A stretch of DNA of 32,896 nucleotides from Gammaproteobacteria bacterium (GTDB lineage Bacteria > Pseudomonadota > Gammaproteobacteria > Steroidobacterales > Steroidobacteraceae): contig DAIDHH010000131.1 of NCBI GenBank assembly GCA_027452045.1, positions 1-32,896 on the forward strand, in the 5' to 3' direction. This document shows, in pieces, positions 16,369 to 24,806 of this stretch; within the stretch, counting starts at the first letter, position 1; each line of letters begins with the position of its first letter. The notes under the pieces were generated by a model. It was not told the origin of the DNA. It made no database searches and saw only the letters and a program-made list of their open reading frames with translations. Made by a program: the position numbers and the translations under genes.

Positions 16369-16437
16369 CTTCACCTTGCGACCGCGGTGTGCGTGAGAGA
16401 CTCGGGCGCACCGGGGTGTTCAGTACTGGAGAGCATC

Positions 16438-18003
16438 GTGAGCGAGTGTCAGACGAAGGCCCGGCGTTCCGGGCGGGAAGCGAGACGGGCTCTGCGCTCA
16501 GGACCGCTTCCGGATAACTTGCGTCCCGTGTGGCCCGGCATGCCCGGCGGACATTTCCGCCCGCTCAGCGACGCGGACGTGCTCGCGATCCATCGTACCG
16601 CGCTGCGGCTGCTCGCCGAGGTGGGGCTCGCGGATGCGCCCCCCTCGGGGGTGGAACTCCTCACCCGGGCGGGGTGCACCCTGAGTGAGCACAATCGGCT
16701 GTTGTTCCCTCAGGCGCTCGTCGAGGACACCGTCGCCCGGGCTGCTCGCCACTTCGTGCTGCATGCGCAGGACCCGCGCTACGACCTAGAACCCTGGGGC
16801 AAGCGCACCTATTTCGGCACCGCCGGCGCGGCGGTGAATCTGGTCCGGGCCGATGGGACCTACCGCGAGTCGACCATCCAGGACCTCTACGACATCGGGC
16901 GGGTCGTCGATGTCATGGAGCACATTCACTTCTTCCAGCGCGCGGTCGTGCCGCGCAACATTCCCGACCCGTTCGAGATGGATTTCAACACCTGCTACGC
17001 CTCGGTCTCGAGCACGACCAAGCACGTCGGCAGCAGCTGGGTGCAGCCCGAGCACCTGACGGCCTCGCTCGAGATGCTGCATGCCATCGCCGGCGGGGAG
17101 GACAGATGGCGCGCCCGGCCGTTCGTCAGCCAGTCGAACTGCTTCGTCGTTCCGCCGATGAAATTCGCGACCGACGCCTGCCGGTGCCTCGAGGTCGCCG
17201 TCCGCGGCGGCATGCCCGTGCTGCTGCTCTCCGCCGGGCAGGCGGGCGCAACCGCGCCGGCCGCCCTCGCCGGCGCCCTCGCCCAGGAAGTCGCCGAGTG
17301 TCTTGCCGGGCTCGTGTACGTCAATGCGATCCGGCCTGGCCATCCGGCGATCTTCGGCACCTGGTGCTTCGTCTCGGACCTGCGCACGGGGGCGATGTCC
17401 GGCGGCAGTCCCGAACAGGCCCTGCTCTCGGCGGCGGCCGGCCAGATGGCCCATTTCTACAACCTGACCGGCGGCACCGCCTCGGGCATGACCGATTCGA
17501 AGATCGCCGACGGCCAGGCGGGCGCCGAGAAGGCGCTGAATCACGCGCTCGTCGGCAATGCCGGCGCGAACCTCATCTACGAGTCCGCCGGCATGCATGC
17601 GAGTCTGCTCGGGTTCTCACTCGAGAGCCTGGTGATCGACAACGACATCATCGGAATGACGCAGCGAACCATCAAGGGCATCGAGGTGAGCGAGGAGCGG
17701 CTGTCCTTCGAGACCATCCGCGATGTCTGCCTGAACGGCCCGGGCCATTACCTCGGCTCCGAGCAGACGCTGCGGCTCATGCAAAGCGAGTACCTGTACC
17801 CGGCGGTCGGCGATCGCAGGAGCCCGAACGAGTGGGTCGAGCAGGGATCGAGCGATGTCATCACCCGCGCGGCGCGCAAGGTGAAGGACATCCTCGCCAG
17901 CCACTACCCGTCGCACATTCCAGAGGCGATCGATGCATCGATCCGTGCGCGTTTCCCCGTGAAGCTCGAGCGCCGGTGCATGCTCGCGGATGAGGCCGCC
18001 TGA
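16438..18003 (+). CDS. MttB-superfamily (trimethylamine methyltransferase-like) protein, non-pyrrolysine
   Basis: A 521-residue member of the trimethylamine methyltransferase family (TIM-barrel). In anaerobes, MttB moves a methyl group from a methylamine to a corrinoid protein; non-pyrrolysine relatives such as MtgB act on glycine betaine. Family landmarks are HRTALRLLAEVG near the N-terminus, FGTAGAAVNLV, the VPPMKFATDACRCLEVAVRGGMPV stretch, GGTASGMTDSKIADGQAGAEKAL, and the C-terminal VNGPGHYLG-like segment (LNGPGHYLGSEQTL). There is no in-frame amber codon, so pyrrolysine is not used. The GTG at 16438 is preceded by GGAGAG; the ATG at 16387 has no ribosome site. No corrinoid protein, MtbA or RamA gene is in the window, while folate-dependent demethylating flavoproteins follow. 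The methyl acceptor is therefore unclear. Confidence 0.9.
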   Translation: MSECQTKARRSGREARRALRSGPLPDNLRPVWPGMPGGHFRPLSDADVLAIHRTALRLLAEVGLADAPPSGVELLTRAGCTLSEHNRLLFPQALVEDTVARAARHFVLHAQDPRYDLEPWGKRTYFGTAGAAVNLVRADGTYRESTIQDLYDIGRVVDVMEHIHFFQRAVVPRNIPDPFEMDFNTCYASVSSTTKHVGSSWVQPEHLTASLEMLHAIAGGEDRWRARPFVSQSNCFVVPPMKFATDACRCLEVAVRGGMPVLLLSAGQAGATAPAALAGALAQEVAECLAGLVYVNAIRPGHPAIFGTWCFVSDLRTGAMSGGSPEQALLSAAAGQMAHFYNLTGGTASGMTDSKIADGQAGAEKALNHALVGNAGANLIYESAGMHASLLGFSLESLVIDNDIIGMTQRTIKGIEVSEERLSFETIRDVCLNGPGHYLGSEQTLRLMQSEYLYPAVGDRRSPNEWVEQGSSDVITRAARKVKDILASHYPSHIPEAIDASIRARFPVKLERRCMLADEAA

Positions 18004-18004
18004 C

Positions 18005-19087
18005 TCACATCAGGAGCACGATCTTGCCGACATGGGCCTTCTCGAGGAACGCCCGCTGAGCCTGCGGCAGCTCCTGCAGCGTGAAGGTACTGGCGAGGAC
18101 GGCACGGATCTCACCCGCCTCGATGTAGCGGACGAGGTTCGCGAATACACCGGGCTCTGGAACCGTGCAGCCGTAGAGCGTCAGGTCTTTGAGATAGAGC
18201 GTACGCAGGTCAAGCGGCACGATCGGCCCGCCGATGGCGCCTGCGACCGCGTAGCGGCCGCCGCACTTGAGAACTTCGAGCAGCGAGGTGAAGGGCGCTC
18301 CACCGACAACGTCGATGACCGCATCGATCGACTCGCGGCCGAGCCGCGCGAGGAGGTCTTCGTTTCGCGCCAAGATCTCGGCGGCACCGAGCGCCCGGAG
18401 TCTTGCGGCCTTCTGCGCCCCCGCCACTGCGATCACCCGCGCGCCCCGTCTGAGCGCAAGCTGTACCGCGGCCGTTCCCACACCACCGGATGCCCCGGTG
18501 ACGAGGACGGCGTCACCGCGGGATATGTGGGCGCGGGTCAACATGTTCTCGGCAGCCGAGTACGAGCACGGGAACGAGGCGAGTTCGGCATCCGACAGCG
18601 TGCTCTCGATGCGCACCGCGTTCGCCTGCGGCACGACGACGAATTCCGCGAACGCGCCATTGCAGTCAGAGCCCAGGTAGCGCGCCCCGCCCTCGGGGGA
18701 CTGCGGTGCGGGACCGAGGACGGGATTGACGATGACCCGCTCGCCGATGCGGGCCGAGGAGACTCCCATGCCGACCGCCGCGATCTCTCCGCAGGCATCG
18801 GCGCCCTGGATCAACGGGAAAGCCACCGACGTTCCGCTCCAGCCGCCTGGACCCGCCAGATCCCGAGGGCGAGCCGCCCCGGCTTCACCGGACTCGATCG
18901 ACCGGTTGCCCTTCGCGTACCAGCCGATGCGCAGATTGATGTCGGTATTGTTGACCGCTGCGGCCCTGACACGCACGAGCACCTCTCCCGGACCCGGCGC
19001 CGGAACCGCCACGTCGCCGCGGTACTCGAGCGCCTCGAAGTCGCCGTGACCGGTCAACAGCCAGGCACGCATACGGGTGGGCGGCAT
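18005..19087 (-). CDS. Medium-chain dehydrogenase/reductase, quinone-oxidoreductase-like
   Basis: A 360-residue MDR-superfamily enzyme with an N-terminal GroES-like fold (PAPGPGEVLVRVRAAAVNNTD) and a Rossmann domain (VLVTGASGGVGTAAVQLALRRGARVIAV). The usual catalytic-zinc GHE motif is replaced by GADACGEI, and the structural-zinc cysteine cluster is absent. This points to the zinc-free quinone reductase/enoyl reductase branch, using NADPH to reduce an activated C=C or quinone. The ATG at 19087 has AGAGG 8 bases upstream. It converges on the mttB-like gene (1 bp between stops) and is divergent from the XRE-cupin regulator gene. Its role in the island is not clear from sequence. Confidence 0.9.
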   Translation of the reverse strand: MPPTRMRAWLLTGHGDFEALEYRGDVAVPAPGPGEVLVRVRAAAVNNTDINLRIGWYAKGNRSIESGEAGAARPRDLAGPGGWSGTSVAFPLIQGADACGEIAAVGMGVSSARIGERVIVNPVLGPAPQSPEGGARYLGSDCNGAFAEFVVVPQANAVRIESTLSDAELASFPCSYSAAENMLTRAHISRGDAVLVTGASGGVGTAAVQLALRRGARVIAVAGAQKAARLRALGAAEILARNEDLLARLGRESIDAVIDVVGGAPFTSLLEVLKCGGRYAVAGAIGGPIVPLDLRTLYLKDLTLYGCTVPEPGVFANLVRYIEAGEIRAVLASTFTLQELPQAQRAFLEKAHVGKIVLLM

Positions 19088-19160
19088 GTCTCAACCTCTG
19101 GCTCAGGCGACCCGGCGCATCGGACGGGCACGCCAGCACCCTCATGAACTTTTATGGGCA

Positions 19161-19182
19161 TATCTTCACGACTGTGAATATA
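19161..19182. promoter_or_regulatory. Palindrome in the XRE-cupin/MDR divergent promoter
   Basis: TATCTTCAC-GACT-GTGAATATA: arms match at 8 of 9 positions, with a perfect TTCAC/GTGAA core. It sits in an AT-rich 126-bp divergent intergenic region. A TATACT hexamer (19179-19184) that could be a -10 element for the regulator overlaps its right arm, and a TATAAT on the minus strand (19195-19200) could serve the MDR gene. The position fits autorepression by the XRE-cupin protein. A related TTCGTGAA lies at 19200-19207. Confidence 0.55.
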
Positions 19183-19213
19183 CTTCCACTATCCATTATA
19201 TTCGTGAACCCCG

Positions 19214-19879
19214 ATGCGCGACAGATCCCCCACCATGAGACGCAGCAGCCGGCGCGCCGCTCCCCGCGGCACGGGGGCCGGTGCCGCACGGCGCCGCGCC
19301 GGCACGGCACACGCCTCCGCCATGAGCCCGCTCGGCGAGCAGATCCGTGACCTCAGGCTGGCCCGGGGCATGAGCGTCGCGGCACTCGCCAAGGCCATCG
19401 GCAAGTCGATCGGCTACGTGAGCCAGATCGAGCGCGGCCGCTCGGAGGTGTCGATCTCGACGCTCAAGGCGATCAGCGATGAGCTCGGTGTGCAGATCAG
19501 TTGGTTCTTCCAAGGGTACGATCCGCGCGTGCCGAGCGAACACGGCTACATCGTGCGCCGGGAGCACCGGCGGCGGCTTGACTTCCCGGGCACCGGCATC
19601 GAGGAGGAATTGCTCTCACCGACCCTCACCGGCGAGGCCGAGCTCATCCTCTCGACCTTCGCTCCGGGGGCGCGCAGCGGCGATGAGCCGGTATCGCGCA
19701 TGGCCGAGCAATCGGGCTACGTGATCGAAGGACAGCTCGAGCTCAGGATCGGCAGCAGGCGCTTCACGCTGCGTCCGGGCGACGCCTTCCGCATCGGACG
19801 CGGGGAGCCCTACACGGCGCGCAATCCCGGCCCCGTCAATTCCGTCTCGCTTTGGGTCATAGCCCCGCCGCGCTATTGA
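19214..19879 (+). CDS. XRE-family regulator with C-terminal cupin domain
   Basis: A 221-residue regulator. The XRE HTH lies at about residues 38-95 (LGEQIRDLRLARGMSVAALAKAIGKSIGYVSQIERGRSEVSISTLKAISDELGVQ), and a small-molecule-sensing cupin barrel occupies ~110-218 (YVIEGQLELRIGSRRFTLRPGDAFRIGRGEPYTARNPG). XRE-cupin proteins commonly control amine or amino-acid catabolic genes beside them (PuuR is an example). The start is uncertain: ATGs at 19214, 19235 and 19322 are in frame and none has a good ribosome site. The 19322 start gives MSPLGEQIRDL, directly at the HTH; the longer forms add a basic, Arg/Ala-rich tail. It lies 26 bp upstream of the first flavoprotein gene, so it probably heads that operon. 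Confidence 0.92.
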   Translation: MRDRSPTMRRSSRRAAPRGTGAGAARRRAGTAHASAMSPLGEQIRDLRLARGMSVAALAKAIGKSIGYVSQIERGRSEVSISTLKAISDELGVQISWFFQGYDPRVPSEHGYIVRREHRRRLDFPGTGIEEELLSPTLTGEAELILSTFAPGARSGDEPVSRMAEQSGYVIEGQLELRIGSRRFTLRPGDAFRIGRGEPYTARNPGPVNSVSLWVIAPPRY

Positions 19880-19905
19880 GCGGCTCATCCCCGCGAGGAC
19901 CTCAT

Positions 19906-22365
19906 ATGTCACTCCCGAGTCATGCTAGCGTGGTCATCGTCGGCGGCGGCGTCGCCGGCTGCTCCGTCGCCTACCACCTCACCCGGCTCGGCGTGACCGA
20001 TGTCGTGCTGCTCGAGCGCAAGCAGCTGACCTGTGGCACGACGTGGCACGCGGCAGGACTCGTCGGGCAGCTGCGTGCGACGCGCAACCTCACCGAGCTC
20101 GCCAAATACACCGCTGACCTCTTTCATGCCCTCGAGTCCGAGACCGGCCAAGCGACAGGCTTCCGGCAGAATGGCTCGATCAGCGTCGCCAAGACGCCGG
20201 AGCGCCTCGAGGAGCTCAAGCGCGGCGCCTCGATGGGCAAGAACTTCGGACTGGCGATCGAGCTGTTGTCTGCGGCCGAGATTCACGAGCGGTGGCCGCT
20301 GCTCGAGGTCGGCGACCTCCTCGGCGGCGTGTTTCTGCCGAAAGATGGCCAGACCAACCCCGTGGACACCACGCTCGCACTCATCAAAGGAGCCAGGCAA
20401 CGTGGCGCGCGCGTTTTCGAGAACACCGCCGTGTCACGCATTCTCATCGAGCGGGGCCGGGCGGTCGGTGTGGAGACGGTCGACGGGGCGGTTCGGGCCG
20501 ACACCGTCGTGCTCTGCGGCGGGATGTGGTCGCACCGCCTCGCAGCCGATGCGGGCGCAGCCGTGCCGCTGCATGCGGCGGAGCACTTCTACATCGTCAC
20601 CGAGCCGATTGCAGGCATCCAGCCGAATCTGCCGGTGCTGCGGGTTCAGGACGAGTGCGCATACTACAAGGAAGATGCGGGCAAGCTGCTCATGGGCTGC
20701 TTCGAGCCCATCGCCAAGCCCTGGGGGATGGAGGGCATCCCGGAGGACTTCTGCTTCGACTCCCTCCCCGAGGACCCCGAGCACTTCGAGCCCATCCTCG
20801 AGGCTGCCGTGCGGCGCGTGCCCGCCCTCGCCACGGCCGGCATCCAGCTCTTCTTCAATGGGCCGGAAAGCTTCACGCCCGATGACCGCTATTACCTTGG
20901 CGAGACTCCAGAGGTGCGCGACCTGTTCGTCGCGGCCGGATTCAATTCCGTCGGCATCGCAGCGAGCGGCGGCGTCGGCAAGGTCGTTGCACAGTGGATC
21001 GTCGATCGCCGTCCCCCGCTCGATCTCTGCGACGTCGACGTGCGGCGCGTCATGCCTTTTCAGTCCAACCGCCGCTACCTGCGTGACCGCACGGTCGAGA
21101 CGCTGGGCCTGCTTTACGCGATGCACTGGCCCTACTACCAATACACGACCGCGCGCAACGCCCGCCGCACGCCCCTGCACGACCGGCTGATCGCCGCGGG
21201 CGCGTGCATGGGCGAGACCGCCGGCTGGGAGCGTCCCAACTGGTTCGCCGCGCCGGGCTCCTCCCCCCGCTACGCATACTCCTACGGACGGCAGAACTGG
21301 TTCGAGGCCTGCCGGGCGGAGTGTCATGCGGTACGCGACCGCGTCGCGCTGTTCGACCAGAGCTCCTTTGCGAAATTCCTCGTGCAGGGCCCGGATGCGG
21401 CGACACTCCTCAACCGCCTCTCGACCGCGCAGATCGACGTGCCACCCGGGCGGATCATCTACACCCAATGGCTCAATGATCGCGGCGGCATCGAGGCGGA
21501 CCTGACCATCACGCGCATCTGCGGACACGAATACCTGGTCGTGACCTCGGCGATCAGCCAGACGCGAGATCTCGCGTGGCTGCGCCGGCACATCGCATCG
21601 GACGGCGAGCTGCGCTGCTGGGTCACCGATGTCACAGCCGGCATCGCGATGCTCGGCGTCATGGGCCCAGACAGCCGGTCGCTTCTTGAGGCCGTCTCGG
21701 GCGCAGATCTGTCCAATGCGGCGCACCCCTTCGGCTGTTCGCGTGAGATCGAGATCGGCTACGCGCGCGTGCGTGCGAGCCGCATCACCTACGTCGGGGA
21801 GCTCGGGTGGGAACTGTACATGTCCGCCGAGCACTGTCTCGATGTGTATGAGCGGCTGCTCGAGGCCGGCGAGGCCTTTGGCTTAAGACACGCGGGCTAC
21901 CATGCGATGGCCTCCTGCCGCATCGAGAAGGGCTACCGGCACTGGAGCCATGACATCGCCGATGAGGACACCCCGCTCGAGTCCGGGCTCGGGTTCACGG
22001 TCGCCTGGGACAAGACGGGCGGATTCATCGGCCGAGAGGCGCTGCTCGCGCAGCGTGACCGGGGCATTCTGCCCAAGCGCCTGGTGCAGGTCATGCTCCT
22101 CGAGGACGCACCGTCCACACCGCTTCTCTATCACGAGGAGCCGATCGTGCGAGACGGCCTCATCGTCGGCTCCATCAAGTCTGGGGCATACGGACACCGC
22201 CTCGGCAAGTCTCTCGGCATGGGCTACGTGAGCTGCCCCGAGGGGGTGAGCCGGGAGTGGCTGCGAGCGGGTCACTGGGAGGTCGAAGTGGCCTGCGAGC
22301 GCCACCCGGCCGAGGTGCGCCTAGAGCCCTGGTACGACCCGAAGAATGAGCGGATCAAGGCGTGA
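19906..22365 (+). CDS. FAD-dependent dimethylglycine/sarcosine dehydrogenase-like protein with GcvT domain
   Basis: An 819-residue flavoprotein with the two-part architecture of dimethylglycine and sarcosine dehydrogenases. Residues ~8-390 are a DAO-type FAD oxidoreductase (VVIVGGGVAGCSVAYHL, E37 for ADP-ribose). H48 in GTTWHAAG is the position of covalent FAD attachment in family members. An FAO-type linker domain follows. Residues ~450-815 are a GcvT-like folate-binding domain (FDQSSFAKFLVQGPDA; ITYVGELGWELYM; MASCRIEKGYRHWSHDI). Such enzymes oxidise an N-methyl group and pass formaldehyde-level carbon to tetrahydrofolate. The ATG at 19906 follows GAGGAC by 6 bases. The next gene starts inside its stop codon (GTGA), or 18 bp later. 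Confidence 0.93.
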   Translation: MSLPSHASVVIVGGGVAGCSVAYHLTRLGVTDVVLLERKQLTCGTTWHAAGLVGQLRATRNLTELAKYTADLFHALESETGQATGFRQNGSISVAKTPERLEELKRGASMGKNFGLAIELLSAAEIHERWPLLEVGDLLGGVFLPKDGQTNPVDTTLALIKGARQRGARVFENTAVSRILIERGRAVGVETVDGAVRADTVVLCGGMWSHRLAADAGAAVPLHAAEHFYIVTEPIAGIQPNLPVLRVQDECAYYKEDAGKLLMGCFEPIAKPWGMEGIPEDFCFDSLPEDPEHFEPILEAAVRRVPALATAGIQLFFNGPESFTPDDRYYLGETPEVRDLFVAAGFNSVGIAASGGVGKVVAQWIVDRRPPLDLCDVDVRRVMPFQSNRRYLRDRTVETLGLLYAMHWPYYQYTTARNARRTPLHDRLIAAGACMGETAGWERPNWFAAPGSSPRYAYSYGRQNWFEACRAECHAVRDRVALFDQSSFAKFLVQGPDAATLLNRLSTAQIDVPPGRIIYTQWLNDRGGIEADLTITRICGHEYLVVTSAISQTRDLAWLRRHIASDGELRCWVTDVTAGIAMLGVMGPDSRSLLEAVSGADLSNAAHPFGCSREIEIGYARVRASRITYVGELGWELYMSAEHCLDVYERLLEAGEAFGLRHAGYHAMASCRIEKGYRHWSHDIADEDTPLESGLGFTVAWDKTGGFIGREALLAQRDRGILPKRLVQVMLLEDAPSTPLLYHEEPIVRDGLIVGSIKSGAYGHRLGKSLGMGYVSCPEGVSREWLRAGHWEVEVACERHPAEVRLEPWYDPKNERIKA

Positions 22366-22382
22366 ACGGGGAGCCGATAACC

Positions 22383-24806
22383 GTGAAAACACATGCACAA
22401 GTGGTCGTCATAGGCGGCGGGGCGGTCGGTTGCAGCGCTCTCTTTCACCTGACGCAGTTGGGCGTCACCGATGTGGTCCTGGTGGAGCGGGATGAGCTCA
22501 CTGCCGGATCCACGTGGCATGCCGCAGGAAACGTCCCGACGTTCTCCACGTCGTGGAATCTCCTGAAGCTGCAGCGGTACACGACTCGCCTGTATGCCGA
22601 CCTGGCGCGCCGCACCGGCTATGAGATCAACTACCACGTCACCGGAAGCATCCGCCTCGCGCACACGCGAGACCGGCTCGATGAGTTCAGGCACATCAGC
22701 GCGCAGGCGCGGGCACAGGGGAGCGAGTTCGAGATCCTGAGTCCCGCCGACATCGCGGCGCGGTATCCCTTCATCCGCACCGAGGGTCTGCTCGCGGGCC
22801 TGTGGGATCCCTACGATGGGGACATCGACCCGGCGCAGATGACGCAGGCCCTGGCCAAGGGCGCCAGAGATCGCGGTGCGCAGATCTACCGCAATACCAA
22901 GGTCACCGCAATCGAACGCACGCCTTCCGGTGAGTGGCGCGTGGTTACGAATCAAGGCACCATCCAGGCGGCCGCGGTCATCAACGCAGCAGGTTACCGA
23001 GGGGGCGAAGTCGCCGCGATGGTCGGGCAGTACCTGCCCATCGTCACCCTGTCACACCAATACCTCGTGACCGAAGACATTCCGGAGCTCGTGGCGCGCG
23101 GCGCGGCCCGCCTGCCGCTTCTGCGTGATCCCGACGTCAGCTACTACCTGCGCCAGGAACGTCAGGGTCTGCTGCTCGGTCCCTACGAGTGGCAGGCGAC
23201 CGCACACTGGCTCGACGGACTTCCGCAGGAGTTCGCGCACCAGTTGTTCGACGATGATCTCGGGCGGCTCGAGAAGTACATCGAGGCGGCCTGCGAGCGC
23301 GTGCCCATCCTCGGCTCGGCCGGGAGCAAGACGGTGATCAACGGACCGATCCCGTATGCTCCGGACGGGAATCCCCTGATCGGGCCAGCCCCCGGACTGC
23401 CGGGCTTCTTCCACTGCTGCGCGTTCACCTTCGGCATCTCCCAGGCGGGCGGCGCGGGCAAGGTCATCGCCGAGTGGGTCGCGAACGGACAGCCCGAGTG
23501 GGACGTCTGGCCGCTCGACTCCCGTCGCTTTCTCGAATTTGCCAACTCCCGATACACGCTCGCGAAGGCCATCGAGACCTACCAGCAGGAGTACGGCATC
23601 GGTTACCCCATCGAGGAGCGCCCGGCCGGCCGGCCCGCCAAGACCTCACCGGTCTATCCGCGCCTGAAGGAAAAGGGGGCGCGCTTTGGCGCGCGAGGTG
23701 GCTGGGAGCGCGCGGTGTATTTTCCGAACCCCTCCGATCCGAGTGGCGCGCAGCCCTCCTTCAGAAGGCCCGCATGGCACGCTGCGCTCGCCCGCGAGTG
23801 CGCCGCAGTGGCGCAGCGCGTGGCGGTGCTCGATCTGCCCGGCTTCACCAAGTTCGAGGTGAGCGGCGCGGCCGCCCCTGCCTGGATCGATCACATGATC
23901 GCCGGAGCGCTGCCGCGGCCCGGGCGCTGCGGGCTCAATTACCTTTGCGCCGAACATGGCGGCATCGTCACGGAGATGACCGTGACGACGCTCACGCCGC
24001 AGCGCTACTGGCTCATCGGCGCCGCGGCCGGCGAGCGGCACGATGAGCACTGGCTCATGGAGCACCTGCCATCCGGGCAGGACGTGCGCATCGAGAACCT
24101 CTCGAGGCGCTTTGGCACGCTGATCGTCGCGGGCCCTAAGGCCCGGGAACTGCTCCAGAGCCTCACGCCGGCGGATCTGTCGAATGCGGCATTCCCCTGG
24201 CTCTCGGTGCGCACGATCGACATCGGTTACACGAAGGCTCTCGCGATACGCGTCAACTACGTAGGTGAGCTCGGCTGGGAGCTGCACATCCCGGTCGAGC
24301 ATGTGCTGTCGGTCTATGAGCTCATCTGGGAAGCGGGCGAACGCTTCGGCATCAGCGACTTCGGCCTGTATGCGATGGACAGCCTGCGGCTCGAGAAGTG
24401 CTATCGCTCATGGAAGGCCGACCTGACGAGCGAATACACCCCTTTCATGGCCTCGCTCGATCGCTTCGTGAGACTCGAGAAGCCCGGCGGATTCATCGGC
24501 CAGGAGGCGCTGCGGCGCGAGGCGGCGGCCGGTCCGAAGGAGCGGTTCGTGCCCCTCATCGTCGATGCGGCGGATGCGGATGCTTCCCCGGTATCGATCG
24601 TCTACGACGGCACGGCCACGGTCGGGCTCGTGACCTCCGGCGGCTTCGGCCATCGGCTCGGCAAGAGCATCGCCCTTGCCTACCTGCGCACCGACCTCGC
24701 CGTACCGGGCAGGACCCTTGAAGTGGAGATTCTCGGCGAGCGGCGCCGGGCAGTCGTTGCCCAGGAGCCCCTGTACGATCCCGAGAACGAGCGCCTGAGA
24801 TCGTAA
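22383..24806 (+). CDS. Second FAD-dependent demethylating dehydrogenase-like protein with GcvT domain
   Basis: An 807-residue paralogue of the preceding protein: FAD domain (VVVIGGGAVGCSALFHL; H46 in GSTWHAAG for likely covalent flavin), linker domain, and GcvT-like folate domain (VLDLPGFTKFEVSG; VNYVGELGWELHI; MDSLRLEKCYRSWKADL). Divergence between the two is strongest around the substrate face, e.g. GNVPTFSTSWNLLKLQRY here against GLVGQLRATRNLTELAKY. Together with domain-wide differences, this suggests different substrates or a heteromeric pair. The GTG at 22383 is chosen because GGGGAG lies 9 bases upstream. A GTG at 22362 overlaps the previous stop (GTGA) and would add seven residues. A convergent HD-GYP gene follows. 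Confidence 0.92.
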   Translation: MKTHAQVVVIGGGAVGCSALFHLTQLGVTDVVLVERDELTAGSTWHAAGNVPTFSTSWNLLKLQRYTTRLYADLARRTGYEINYHVTGSIRLAHTRDRLDEFRHISAQARAQGSEFEILSPADIAARYPFIRTEGLLAGLWDPYDGDIDPAQMTQALAKGARDRGAQIYRNTKVTAIERTPSGEWRVVTNQGTIQAAAVINAAGYRGGEVAAMVGQYLPIVTLSHQYLVTEDIPELVARGAARLPLLRDPDVSYYLRQERQGLLLGPYEWQATAHWLDGLPQEFAHQLFDDDLGRLEKYIEAACERVPILGSAGSKTVINGPIPYAPDGNPLIGPAPGLPGFFHCCAFTFGISQAGGAGKVIAEWVANGQPEWDVWPLDSRRFLEFANSRYTLAKAIETYQQEYGIGYPIEERPAGRPAKTSPVYPRLKEKGARFGARGGWERAVYFPNPSDPSGAQPSFRRPAWHAALARECAAVAQRVAVLDLPGFTKFEVSGAAAPAWIDHMIAGALPRPGRCGLNYLCAEHGGIVTEMTVTTLTPQRYWLIGAAAGERHDEHWLMEHLPSGQDVRIENLSRRFGTLIVAGPKARELLQSLTPADLSNAAFPWLSVRTIDIGYTKALAIRVNYVGELGWELHIPVEHVLSVYELIWEAGERFGISDFGLYAMDSLRLEKCYRSWKADLTSEYTPFMASLDRFVRLEKPGGFIGQEALRREAAAGPKERFVPLIVDAADADASPVSIVYDGTATVGLVTSGGFGHRLGKSIALAYLRTDLAVPGRTLEVEILGERRRAVVAQEPLYDPENERLRS

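What the first reader, a model, noticed from the sequence alone, without database searches (positions are those of the whole stretch)
16438..24806. Corrinoid-free MttB-like methyltransferase beside twin folate-linked demethylating flavoproteins
Seen: an MttB-superfamily gene with no amber codon, an XRE-cupin regulator, and two adjacent FAD+GcvT proteins, with no corrinoid protein, MtbA-type transferase or RamA in 33 kb. Known: characterised MttB-family enzymes pass methyl groups to a corrinoid protein, while DMGDH-type proteins pass one-carbon units to tetrahydrofolate. Inference: in this organism the MttB fold may work with the flavoproteins in aerobic degradation of a quaternary amine, using a different acceptor or mechanism (folate or a distant corrinoid protein). 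I know of no biochemical description of that combination.
Basis: partly seen in the sequence, partly recalled or inferred. Interest (0 to 1): 0.8.

Follow-up and report, generated by a model that had tools for sequence, protein, structure and literature searches.

The report
Plug-in demethylase module, corrinoid core elsewhere
A bacterium carries a gene set predicted to strip methyl groups one by one from a small quaternary ammonium compound, possibly the taurine-derived osmolyte taurine betaine; the first step is not cobalamin-free as first thought but most likely uses a B12 protein encoded elsewhere in the same genome.

Summary
In detail: a non-pyrrolysine MttB-family gene, an XRE-cupin regulator and two FAD+GcvT (DMGDH-like) genes, with no corrinoid protein found in the window. 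The corrinoid-free reading does not hold. The same genome encodes corrinoid protein MtgC, DUF1638, MTHFR, MtgD and activase RACo on contig C133, and seven MttB genes. That is the published aerobic architecture, in which one MtgC core serves several MttB paralogues (Mausz 2025). RACo occurs in 47 of 48 genome handles searched that hold this clade. In G055 the gene lies beside mtgC; in seven other genomes core genes lie 6-30 kb away.

The MttB-flavoprotein link is real: 47 of 80 loci have flavoprotein genes downstream. New here is a substrate lead. In one genome the operon reads IclR-AptA aminotransferase-MttB-flavoprotein-flavoprotein, divergent from xsc (sulfoacetaldehyde acetyltransferase); a second shows the same up to a contig end; in a third the same locus lacks mttB. 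I infer that MttB removes the first methyl of a quaternary amine and the flavoproteins the other two. Taurine betaine is the leading candidate for the clade, weaker for this organism, where no xsc was found (75% complete MAG). Nothing was tested biochemically.

The parts
16387..18003 (+). MttB-superfamily methyltransferase gene of a distinct non-pyrrolysine clade (start unresolved; GTG at 16438 also possible)
   Evidence: PF06253 379 bits; nearest PDB chains MttB 7xcl and MtgB 2qne/9yce; Met at the pyrrolysine position, Tyr364 and Gly110 equivalents kept
18005..19087 (-). zinc-type alcohol dehydrogenase/quinone oxidoreductase-like gene; the same opposite-strand gene sits in the same module in L045, L047-L054, L057, L060, L084 and L110
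   Evidence: PF00107 and PF08240; neighbour map
19214..19879 (+). XRE-HTH plus cupin regulator, upstream of the two flavoprotein genes
   Evidence: PF01381 and PF07883; XRE homologue in 13 of 80 loci
19906..22365 (+). DM1: DMGDH-like FAD+GcvT protein (ORF from 19852; ATG at 19906)
   Evidence: PF01266, PF16350, PF01571, PF08669; DMGDH 4p9s 459 bits
22362..24806 (+). DM2: second DMGDH-like FAD+GcvT protein, overlapping DM1 by 4 bases
   Evidence: same domains; human DMGDH 5l46 661 bits
14564..16267 (+). aldehyde dehydrogenase upstream of MttB on the same strand (81% identical copy in L045 and L156, both genome G006); membership of the module uncertain
   Evidence: PF00171 532 bits
13324..14829 (+). 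MFS transporter upstream; possible uptake, uncertain
   Evidence: PF07690 142 bits

Best explanation
The window carries a dispersed substrate module of an aerobic, corrinoid-dependent demethylation system. Step 1 (inferred): the MttB-like enzyme passes one methyl group of a quaternary ammonium compound to the corrinoid protein MtgC encoded on contig C133; MtgD moves it to tetrahydrofolate; RACo/DUF1638 re-reduce the cobalt. Steps 2 and 3 (inferred): the two DMGDH-like flavoproteins oxidatively remove the second and third methyl groups, and their GcvT domains load the carbon onto tetrahydrofolate. The product is a primary amine. For the clade the leading candidate substrate is taurine betaine (N,N,N-trimethyltaurine), giving taurine, then sulfoacetaldehyde by an AptA-type transaminase, then acetyl phosphate and sulfite by Xsc. 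Shown: genes, positions, co-occurrence, synteny and active-site letters. Inferred: all chemistry and the substrate. My probabilities: corrinoid use 0.9; flavoproteins acting on MttB's product 0.8; taurine betaine 0.45 for at least part of the clade, about 0.3 for this organism.
For: Own genome: corrinoid protein (PF02310+PF02607), DUF1638, MTHFR, pterin-binding and RACo genes on C133; seven PF06253 genes. Across 48 handles holding the clade (47 distinct; G006 and G060 are one genome): RACo 47 of 48; B12-binding_2 47 of 48, stand-alone MtgC 44 of 48 by my reading of that list. Control over 60 genomes (own included): RACo in 27 of 30 MttB-positive and 2 of 30 MttB-negative. Linkage: mtgC beside the gene in G055 (L133); core genes 6-30 kb away in G061-G065, G067, G069 (places checked). 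cobS (11 loci) and/or cobT (9) upstream on the opposite strand in 12 of 80 loci (one protein of each scanned). Met at the Pyl334 position and Tyr at Tyr364 in 27 of 27 rows from the loci. Substrate: IclR-AptA-MttB-DM1-DM2 divergent from Xsc in L080; in G027 (L081 = L177) the same up to the start of DM1, where the contig ends. L149 aligns to L080 on both sides at 83-84% DNA identity with mttB absent. Xsc 1016 and 897 bits against 676 in L148 and L149 beside DM1-DM2. R. pomeroyi relative (45%) in a run with a class III aminotransferase, two FAD/GcvT genes and an Xsc-like enzyme (394 bits, below the cut-off).
Against: No Xsc over cut-off in the window's genome or in 20 further clade genomes (26 of 47 have it; G098 has a 623-bit fragment). 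Within the window's genus the xsc association is weak (6 of 18 against 0 of 8, two-sided p = 0.13). The AptA-Xsc linkage to this MttB rests on two distinct genomes, with a low-identity parallel in R. pomeroyi. DM1 orthologues (53% or more) also occur in 12 of 60 relatives in which this MttB was not found (in one, G036, the contig ends inside the dehydrogenase gene next to the regulator, so mttB may be missing from the assembly), so the coupling is not obligatory. 23 loci with at least 2.5 kb downstream lack the flavoproteins there. Four handles lack a detectable MtgC (G013, G020, G030, G093) and G093 also lacks RACo. Three of 30 MttB-positive relatives lack RACo (G005, G009, G053). Other MttB paralogues in the same genomes could by themselves explain RACo and MtgC: every handle has at least two PF06253 genes. 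MttB Gly372, which bonds the corrinoid, is Leu here (MtgB has Phe). The Met/Tyr pair is not kept in all more distant relatives (five plasmid proteins read Ile/Thr, Met/His, Ile/Tyr, Met/Tyr, Met/Cys).
Confidence: 0.75

Rival explanations
1. Same corrinoid mechanism, but the substrate is a carboxylated or other quaternary amine (glycine betaine, beta-alanine betaine, carnitine-type, stachydrine-type), not taurine betaine.
For: Own genome shows no Xsc; omega-aminotransferases of the AptA type would also suit beta-alanine (recalled); aldehyde dehydrogenase upstream in the window and in L045/L156; a relative at 45% identity lies beside a glycine betaine/proline transporter, one at 43% beside a Rieske protein and a mandelate-racemase-family gene.
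Against: Glycine betaine is better explained by other paralogues beside sarcosine oxidase genes (L124, L126, L127). AptA-Xsc synteny and the mttB-less copy of the locus favour a sulfonate, at least in part of the clade.
Confidence: 0.4
2. Corrinoid-independent MttB: the methyl goes directly to folate or to a flavoprotein partner.
For: No corrinoid gene found in the window; conserved pairing with folate-binding-domain proteins; G093 shows neither RACo nor MtgC while holding four PF06253 genes.
Against: RACo in 47 of 48 handles, mtgC adjacency in G055, cobS/cobT neighbours, several PF06253 proteins sharing one core as published. G093 is a draft assembly and the core genes usually lie together, so one missing contig would remove both (inference).
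Confidence: 0.05
3. MttB and the flavoproteins are only neighbours and act on unrelated substrates.
For: Opposite-strand gene between them in the window; DM1-DM2 occur where this MttB was not found; 23 loci lack the neighbours.
Against: 33 of 80 loci have a flavoprotein gene within 400 bp on the same strand, and the order is DM1-DM2 or DM2-DM1 in different lineages, with a further order in R. pomeroyi.
Confidence: 0.12

Closest known systems
Aerobic MtgBCD system of Ruegeria pomeroyi DSS-3 (Mausz 2025, PMC12478193; parts 1-4 of 6 of the text read)
   Same: PF06253 methyltransferase genes around one MtgC/MtgD/RamA/DUF1638 core; the paper counts up to seven PF06253 ORFs and proposes other methylated substrates
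   Different: The paper proves mtgC and mtgD for glycine betaine. The window's MttB belongs to another clade than the MtgB-like group; the word 'taurine' has 0 occurrences in the paper's main text
MttB of Methanosarcina barkeri (7xcl/7xcm/7xcn; PMC9842639, section 5 parts 1-2 of 3 read)
   Same: Fold, Gly110 and Tyr364 equivalents
   Different: Pyrrolysine 334 is Met; about 30% identity; TIGR02369 359.6 bits against a cut-off of 525
MtgB of Desulfitobacterium hafniense (2qne, 9yce)
   Same: Non-pyrrolysine MttB-superfamily member, similar score (208 bits)
   Different: Active-site letters differ: Leu/Leu against Met/Tyr at the Pyl334/Tyr364 positions
Dimethylglycine dehydrogenase (4p9s, 5l46) and oxidase (1pj5)
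   Same: Whole-length domain order and homology of DM1 and DM2
   Different: DM1 is the more divergent (459 against 661 bits for DM2); substrates unknown
Taurine dissimilation by transaminase and Xsc (pathway recalled; Xsc model TIGR03457)
   Same: AptA-type transaminase and Xsc in the same cluster in L080, L081 and L149; another class III aminotransferase with Xsc and Pta in L148
   Different: Xsc not found in the window's own genome

Membership tests
MttB superfamily (PF06253) | Profile match over the curated cut-off | tested here: met
   379 bits against 25
MttB superfamily (PF06253) | Fold of MttB/MtgB | tested here: met
   AlphaFold model pLDDT 78, pTM 0.84; Foldseek best hits 7xcl E 2.8e-32 and 2qne E 6e-30, TM 0.71-0.78, rmsd 14-15 A over whole chains
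MttB superfamily (PF06253) | Corrinoid protein and activase available in the genome | tested here: met
MttB superfamily (PF06253) | Methyl transfer to cob(I)alamin protein | not testable with these tools
   needs purified proteins
Pyrrolysine trimethylamine methyltransferase (MttB proper) | In-frame amber codon / pyrrolysine at position 334 | tested here: not met
   0 TAG codons, Met at that position
Pyrrolysine trimethylamine methyltransferase (MttB proper) | TIGR02369 equivalog cut-off | tested here: not met
   359.6 against 525 bits
Aerobic MtgBCD system | MtgC, MtgD, RACo and DUF1638 present | tested here: met
   L125 = C133
Aerobic MtgBCD system | Loss of growth on the substrate without mtgC | not testable with these tools
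   genetics
Dimethylglycine dehydrogenase family (DM1, DM2) | DAO, FAO_M, GCV_T and GCV_T_C domains in order | tested here: met
Dimethylglycine dehydrogenase family (DM1, DM2) | Oxidation of dimethylglycine or sarcosine | not testable with these tools
   enzyme assay
Taurine (Xsc) pathway | Xsc over cut-off in the window's genome | tested here: not met
   no match at E 1e-100 in G000, a 75% complete MAG
Taurine (Xsc) pathway | Xsc beside the MttB clade or its flavoproteins in relatives | tested here: met
   L080, L081 (= L177), L148, L149

The most novel reading that the evidence does not exclude
This MttB clade is the quaternary-amine entry point of a complete sulfonate pathway: a corrinoid-dependent taurine betaine demethylase plugged between a transaminase and two flavoprotein demethylases. 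Lineages gain or lose the ability to use the trimethylated osmolyte by gaining or losing the single mttB gene, as the L080/L149 pair suggests. The active site is of a new type, with Met in place of pyrrolysine but the Tyr and Gly partners of pyrrolysine kept.
Probability: 0.35. Interest if true: 0.65.

Novelty: new variant of a known kind. Interest (0 to 1): 0.5.

Why it matters
It places a conserved MttB clade of Proteobacteria, for which my searches found no described substrate, within the newly described aerobic B12 demethylation network and gives it a concrete, testable one. If right, a link between a methylated sulfonate osmolyte, vitamin B12, one-carbon metabolism and sulfite release becomes testable in cultured bacteria such as Dongia mobilis. 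It also warns against reading a missing local corrinoid gene as a corrinoid-free mechanism.

Tried and rejected
Corrinoid-free mechanism: rejected on the genome-wide evidence. Glycine betaine as the main substrate: thought less likely because other paralogues lie beside soxB/soxA homologues (L124, L126, L127). Salt bridge Glu225 and Gly372 of MttB as markers of corrinoid binding: uninformative, because neither is kept in MtgB either. Tree: the placing of MttB 7xcm and of the own C24 paralogue is unsafe (long branches flagged by the program); only the separation of the window clade from the MtgB/4yyc group is used. The 'C0' cluster wrongly merged MttB with the flavoproteins; split. L083 has MttB and DM1 in one open frame; not pursued. 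A second look at the fold with VIA-align could not be run.

Literature searches; apart from PMC12478193 and PMC9842639 only listings were seen. One search ('taurine betaine', 'N-methyltaurine', 'trimethyltaurine', 'dimethyltaurine'; 48 papers, 30 listed) listed no paper on bacterial taurine betaine demethylation by title or abstract start, and no listed paper holds the phrase 'taurine betaine'; 18 were not seen. One search (20 of 14,328 listed) showed none with that phrase either. combined 'trimethylamine methyltransferase', 'xsc', 'taurine', 'sarcosine' and 'GcvT' and listed six papers, none on this set by title. Only the open-licence PMC library was searched.

Rows dropped: searches used 40 of the 80 loci, chosen by me mostly for longer contigs, plus 8 genomes (48 handles; G006 and G060 are one genome). 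The 80 loci are themselves the best 80 of 134 confirmed. One search used 80 genomes: 47 clade genomes and 33 relatives without the clade; 19 of the 60 relatives were left out because of the limit of 80. The tree used the window, 26 of 80 loci, the L133 copy, seven own or paralogue rows, five plasmid relatives and three PDB chains. The match lists were cut by the tool; counts of genes per genome come from the genome rows.
Full report
OBSERVATION. The window lies on contig C131 of a 3.72-Mb MAG (198 contigs, 75% complete). The MttB-like ORF 16387-18003 (+) scores 379 bits to PF06253, has no in-frame TAG and ends in TGA. The XRE-cupin gene (19214-19879) and two FAD+GcvT genes (19906-22365, 22362-24806) are as described. 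A zinc-type dehydrogenase gene on the opposite strand (18005-19087) separates MttB from the regulator. No PF02607, PF14574 or PF00809 match lies on C131.

WHERE THE CORRINOID SYSTEM IS. The same genome has seven PF06253 genes. Contig C133 holds a corrinoid protein (PF02310+PF02607), DUF1638, MTHFR, a pterin-binding methyltransferase and RACo, with one of the seven MttB genes just upstream and two more further off. In R. [quoted passage not shown]). A missing corrinoid gene within 33 kb is therefore expected, not anomalous.

CO-OCCURRENCE AND LINKAGE. Of 48 handles carrying the window's clade (47 distinct), RACo is found in 47 and B12-binding_2 in 47. Reading the list, a stand-alone corrinoid protein is present in 44; G013, G020, G030 and G093 lack one, and a search with the own MtgC gave only MetH-like or weak matches in those four. 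Control over 60 genomes, the own one included: 27 of 30 with an MttB homologue have RACo, 2 of 30 without (Fisher p = 3e-11, not corrected for kinship). In G055 the clade member (57% identical) is next to mtgC and shares the locus with another MttB, DUF1638, MtgD, RACo and DMGDH-like genes (L133). The other genomes were not examined for linkage. cobS (11 loci) and/or cobT (9 loci) lie upstream on the opposite strand in 12 of 80 loci, in some with an aldehyde dehydrogenase gene between. One protein of each was scanned: CobS 596 bits over a cut-off of 559, CobT 641 bits below its cut-off of 759 but over both Pfam CobT cut-offs. Because every handle has at least two PF06253 genes, co-occurrence alone does not prove that this member uses the core; linkage adds weight.

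THE CLADE. A maximum-likelihood tree puts the window's protein with 32 relatives (100/99 support), apart from MtgB, 4yyc and five of the six other own paralogues. In 27 of 27 rows taken from loci, and in the window, Met stands where MttB has pyrrolysine, and Tyr364 and Gly110 of MttB are kept; MtgB has Leu, Leu and Tyr at the Pyl334, Tyr364 and Gly110 places. Five more distant plasmid relatives keep the Gly but vary at the other two places (Ile/Thr, Met/His, Ile/Tyr, Met/Tyr, Met/Cys). The AlphaFold model (35 sequences, pLDDT 78, pTM 0.84) matches MttB and MtgB first.

THE FLAVOPROTEINS. Both are whole-length DMGDH homologues. Of 80 loci, 47 have them downstream on the same strand within 10 kb: 31 in the order DM1-DM2, 5 as DM2-DM1 (Dongia and kin), 11 with one seen, some of these cut by a contig end. 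In 33 the gap is under 400 bp. Of the other loci, 23 hold at least 2.5 kb downstream and show none; 10 end too soon. Twelve of the 23 negatives are the Thioglobus/Arenicellales/Acidiferrobacteraceae-type loci L108 and L113-L123. R. pomeroyi has MttB (45%)-aminotransferase-FAD/GcvT-FAD/GcvT-TPP enzyme.

SUBSTRATE LEAD. DM1 orthologues at 53% identity or more also occur in 12 of 60 relatives in which this MttB was not found (for G036 the contig ends before the place where mttB would lie), so I looked at what accompanies them. In L149 DM1-DM2 follow an AptA transaminase (594 bits over 500) and IclR, divergent from Xsc (897 bits over 676). In L148 they lie beside another class III aminotransferase, a MocR-type regulator, Xsc (1016 bits) and a Pta-like gene. 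L145 has IclR-AptA-DM1-DM2 without Xsc beside it. L146, L147, L150 and L154 show DM1 with other neighbours. In L080 the operon is IclR-AptA-MttB-DM1-DM2, divergent from Xsc. G027 (L081 = L177) shows the same up to the first residues of DM1, where the contig ends. L080 and L149 align on both sides of mttB at about 83-84% DNA identity, with mttB absent from L149. The simplest reading is that mttB adds the first demethylation of a trimethylated compound to a pathway that already handles the dimethyl and monomethyl forms and ends in sulfoacetaldehyde cleavage: taurine betaine to taurine.

LIMITS. Xsc over cut-off is found in 26 of 47 clade genomes, 5 of 12 genomes with DM1 but no clade MttB, and 0 of 21 with neither (G098 and G033 have fragments below the cut-off). 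Inside the window's genus the contrast is 6 of 18 against 0 of 8 (p = 0.13), and the wider contrast (31 of 59 against 0 of 21) is confounded by kinship. In most clade genomes Xsc was not looked at for position relative to mttB. The window's genome has no Xsc match, although it is only 75% complete. Substrate assignment for this organism is therefore open; a carboxylated betaine is a serious rival.

VERDICT. Observation confirmed; corrinoid-free reading not supported; coupling of MttB with the flavoproteins supported. The system is a variant of the known aerobic corrinoid demethylation architecture, with a new substrate proposal that ordinary bench work can test.

Noticed in passing
L178 8421-14278 (G001:C11): Xsc and a class III aminotransferase lie beside a different MttB paralogue (28% to the own C133a copy), suggesting that a second MttB clade may also feed a sulfonate route.
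   Followed up: no
L179 6906-18282 (G015:C85): Xsc, aminotransferase, a DM2-like gene (40%) and soxA/soxB homologues in one cluster.
   Followed up: no
L083 2232-5090: MttB (to residue 477) and DM1 lie in one 953-aa open frame; fusion, frameshift or assembly error not decided.
   Followed up: no
G093 (genome of L109): Four PF06253 genes but no RACo and no MtgC found; incomplete assembly or a real exception.
   Followed up: partly
L128 10352-11878 (G000:C24): Seventh and most divergent MttB paralogue of the genome (243 bits to PF06253), upstream neighbour a TetR-like regulator by eye; function unknown.
   Followed up: no
L125 12255-12590: Small protein matching PF13769 ('Virulence_fact') sits inside the corrinoid core cluster between DUF1638 and MTHFR; the name is probably misleading here.
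   Followed up: no
L047-L051, L053, L054, L057, L110: A folD gene (THF dehydrogenase/cyclohydrolase) lies between MttB and DM1 in these 9 of 80 loci (a tenth, L059, has folD but its contig ends before any DM1) and not in the window.
   Followed up: partly
L143 (Leisingera caerulea plasmid): A 43% relative lies beside a Rieske protein and a mandelate-racemase-family gene, with no FAD/GcvT-type gene found in the 19-kb stretch, so the wider clade may cover several substrates.
   Followed up: no
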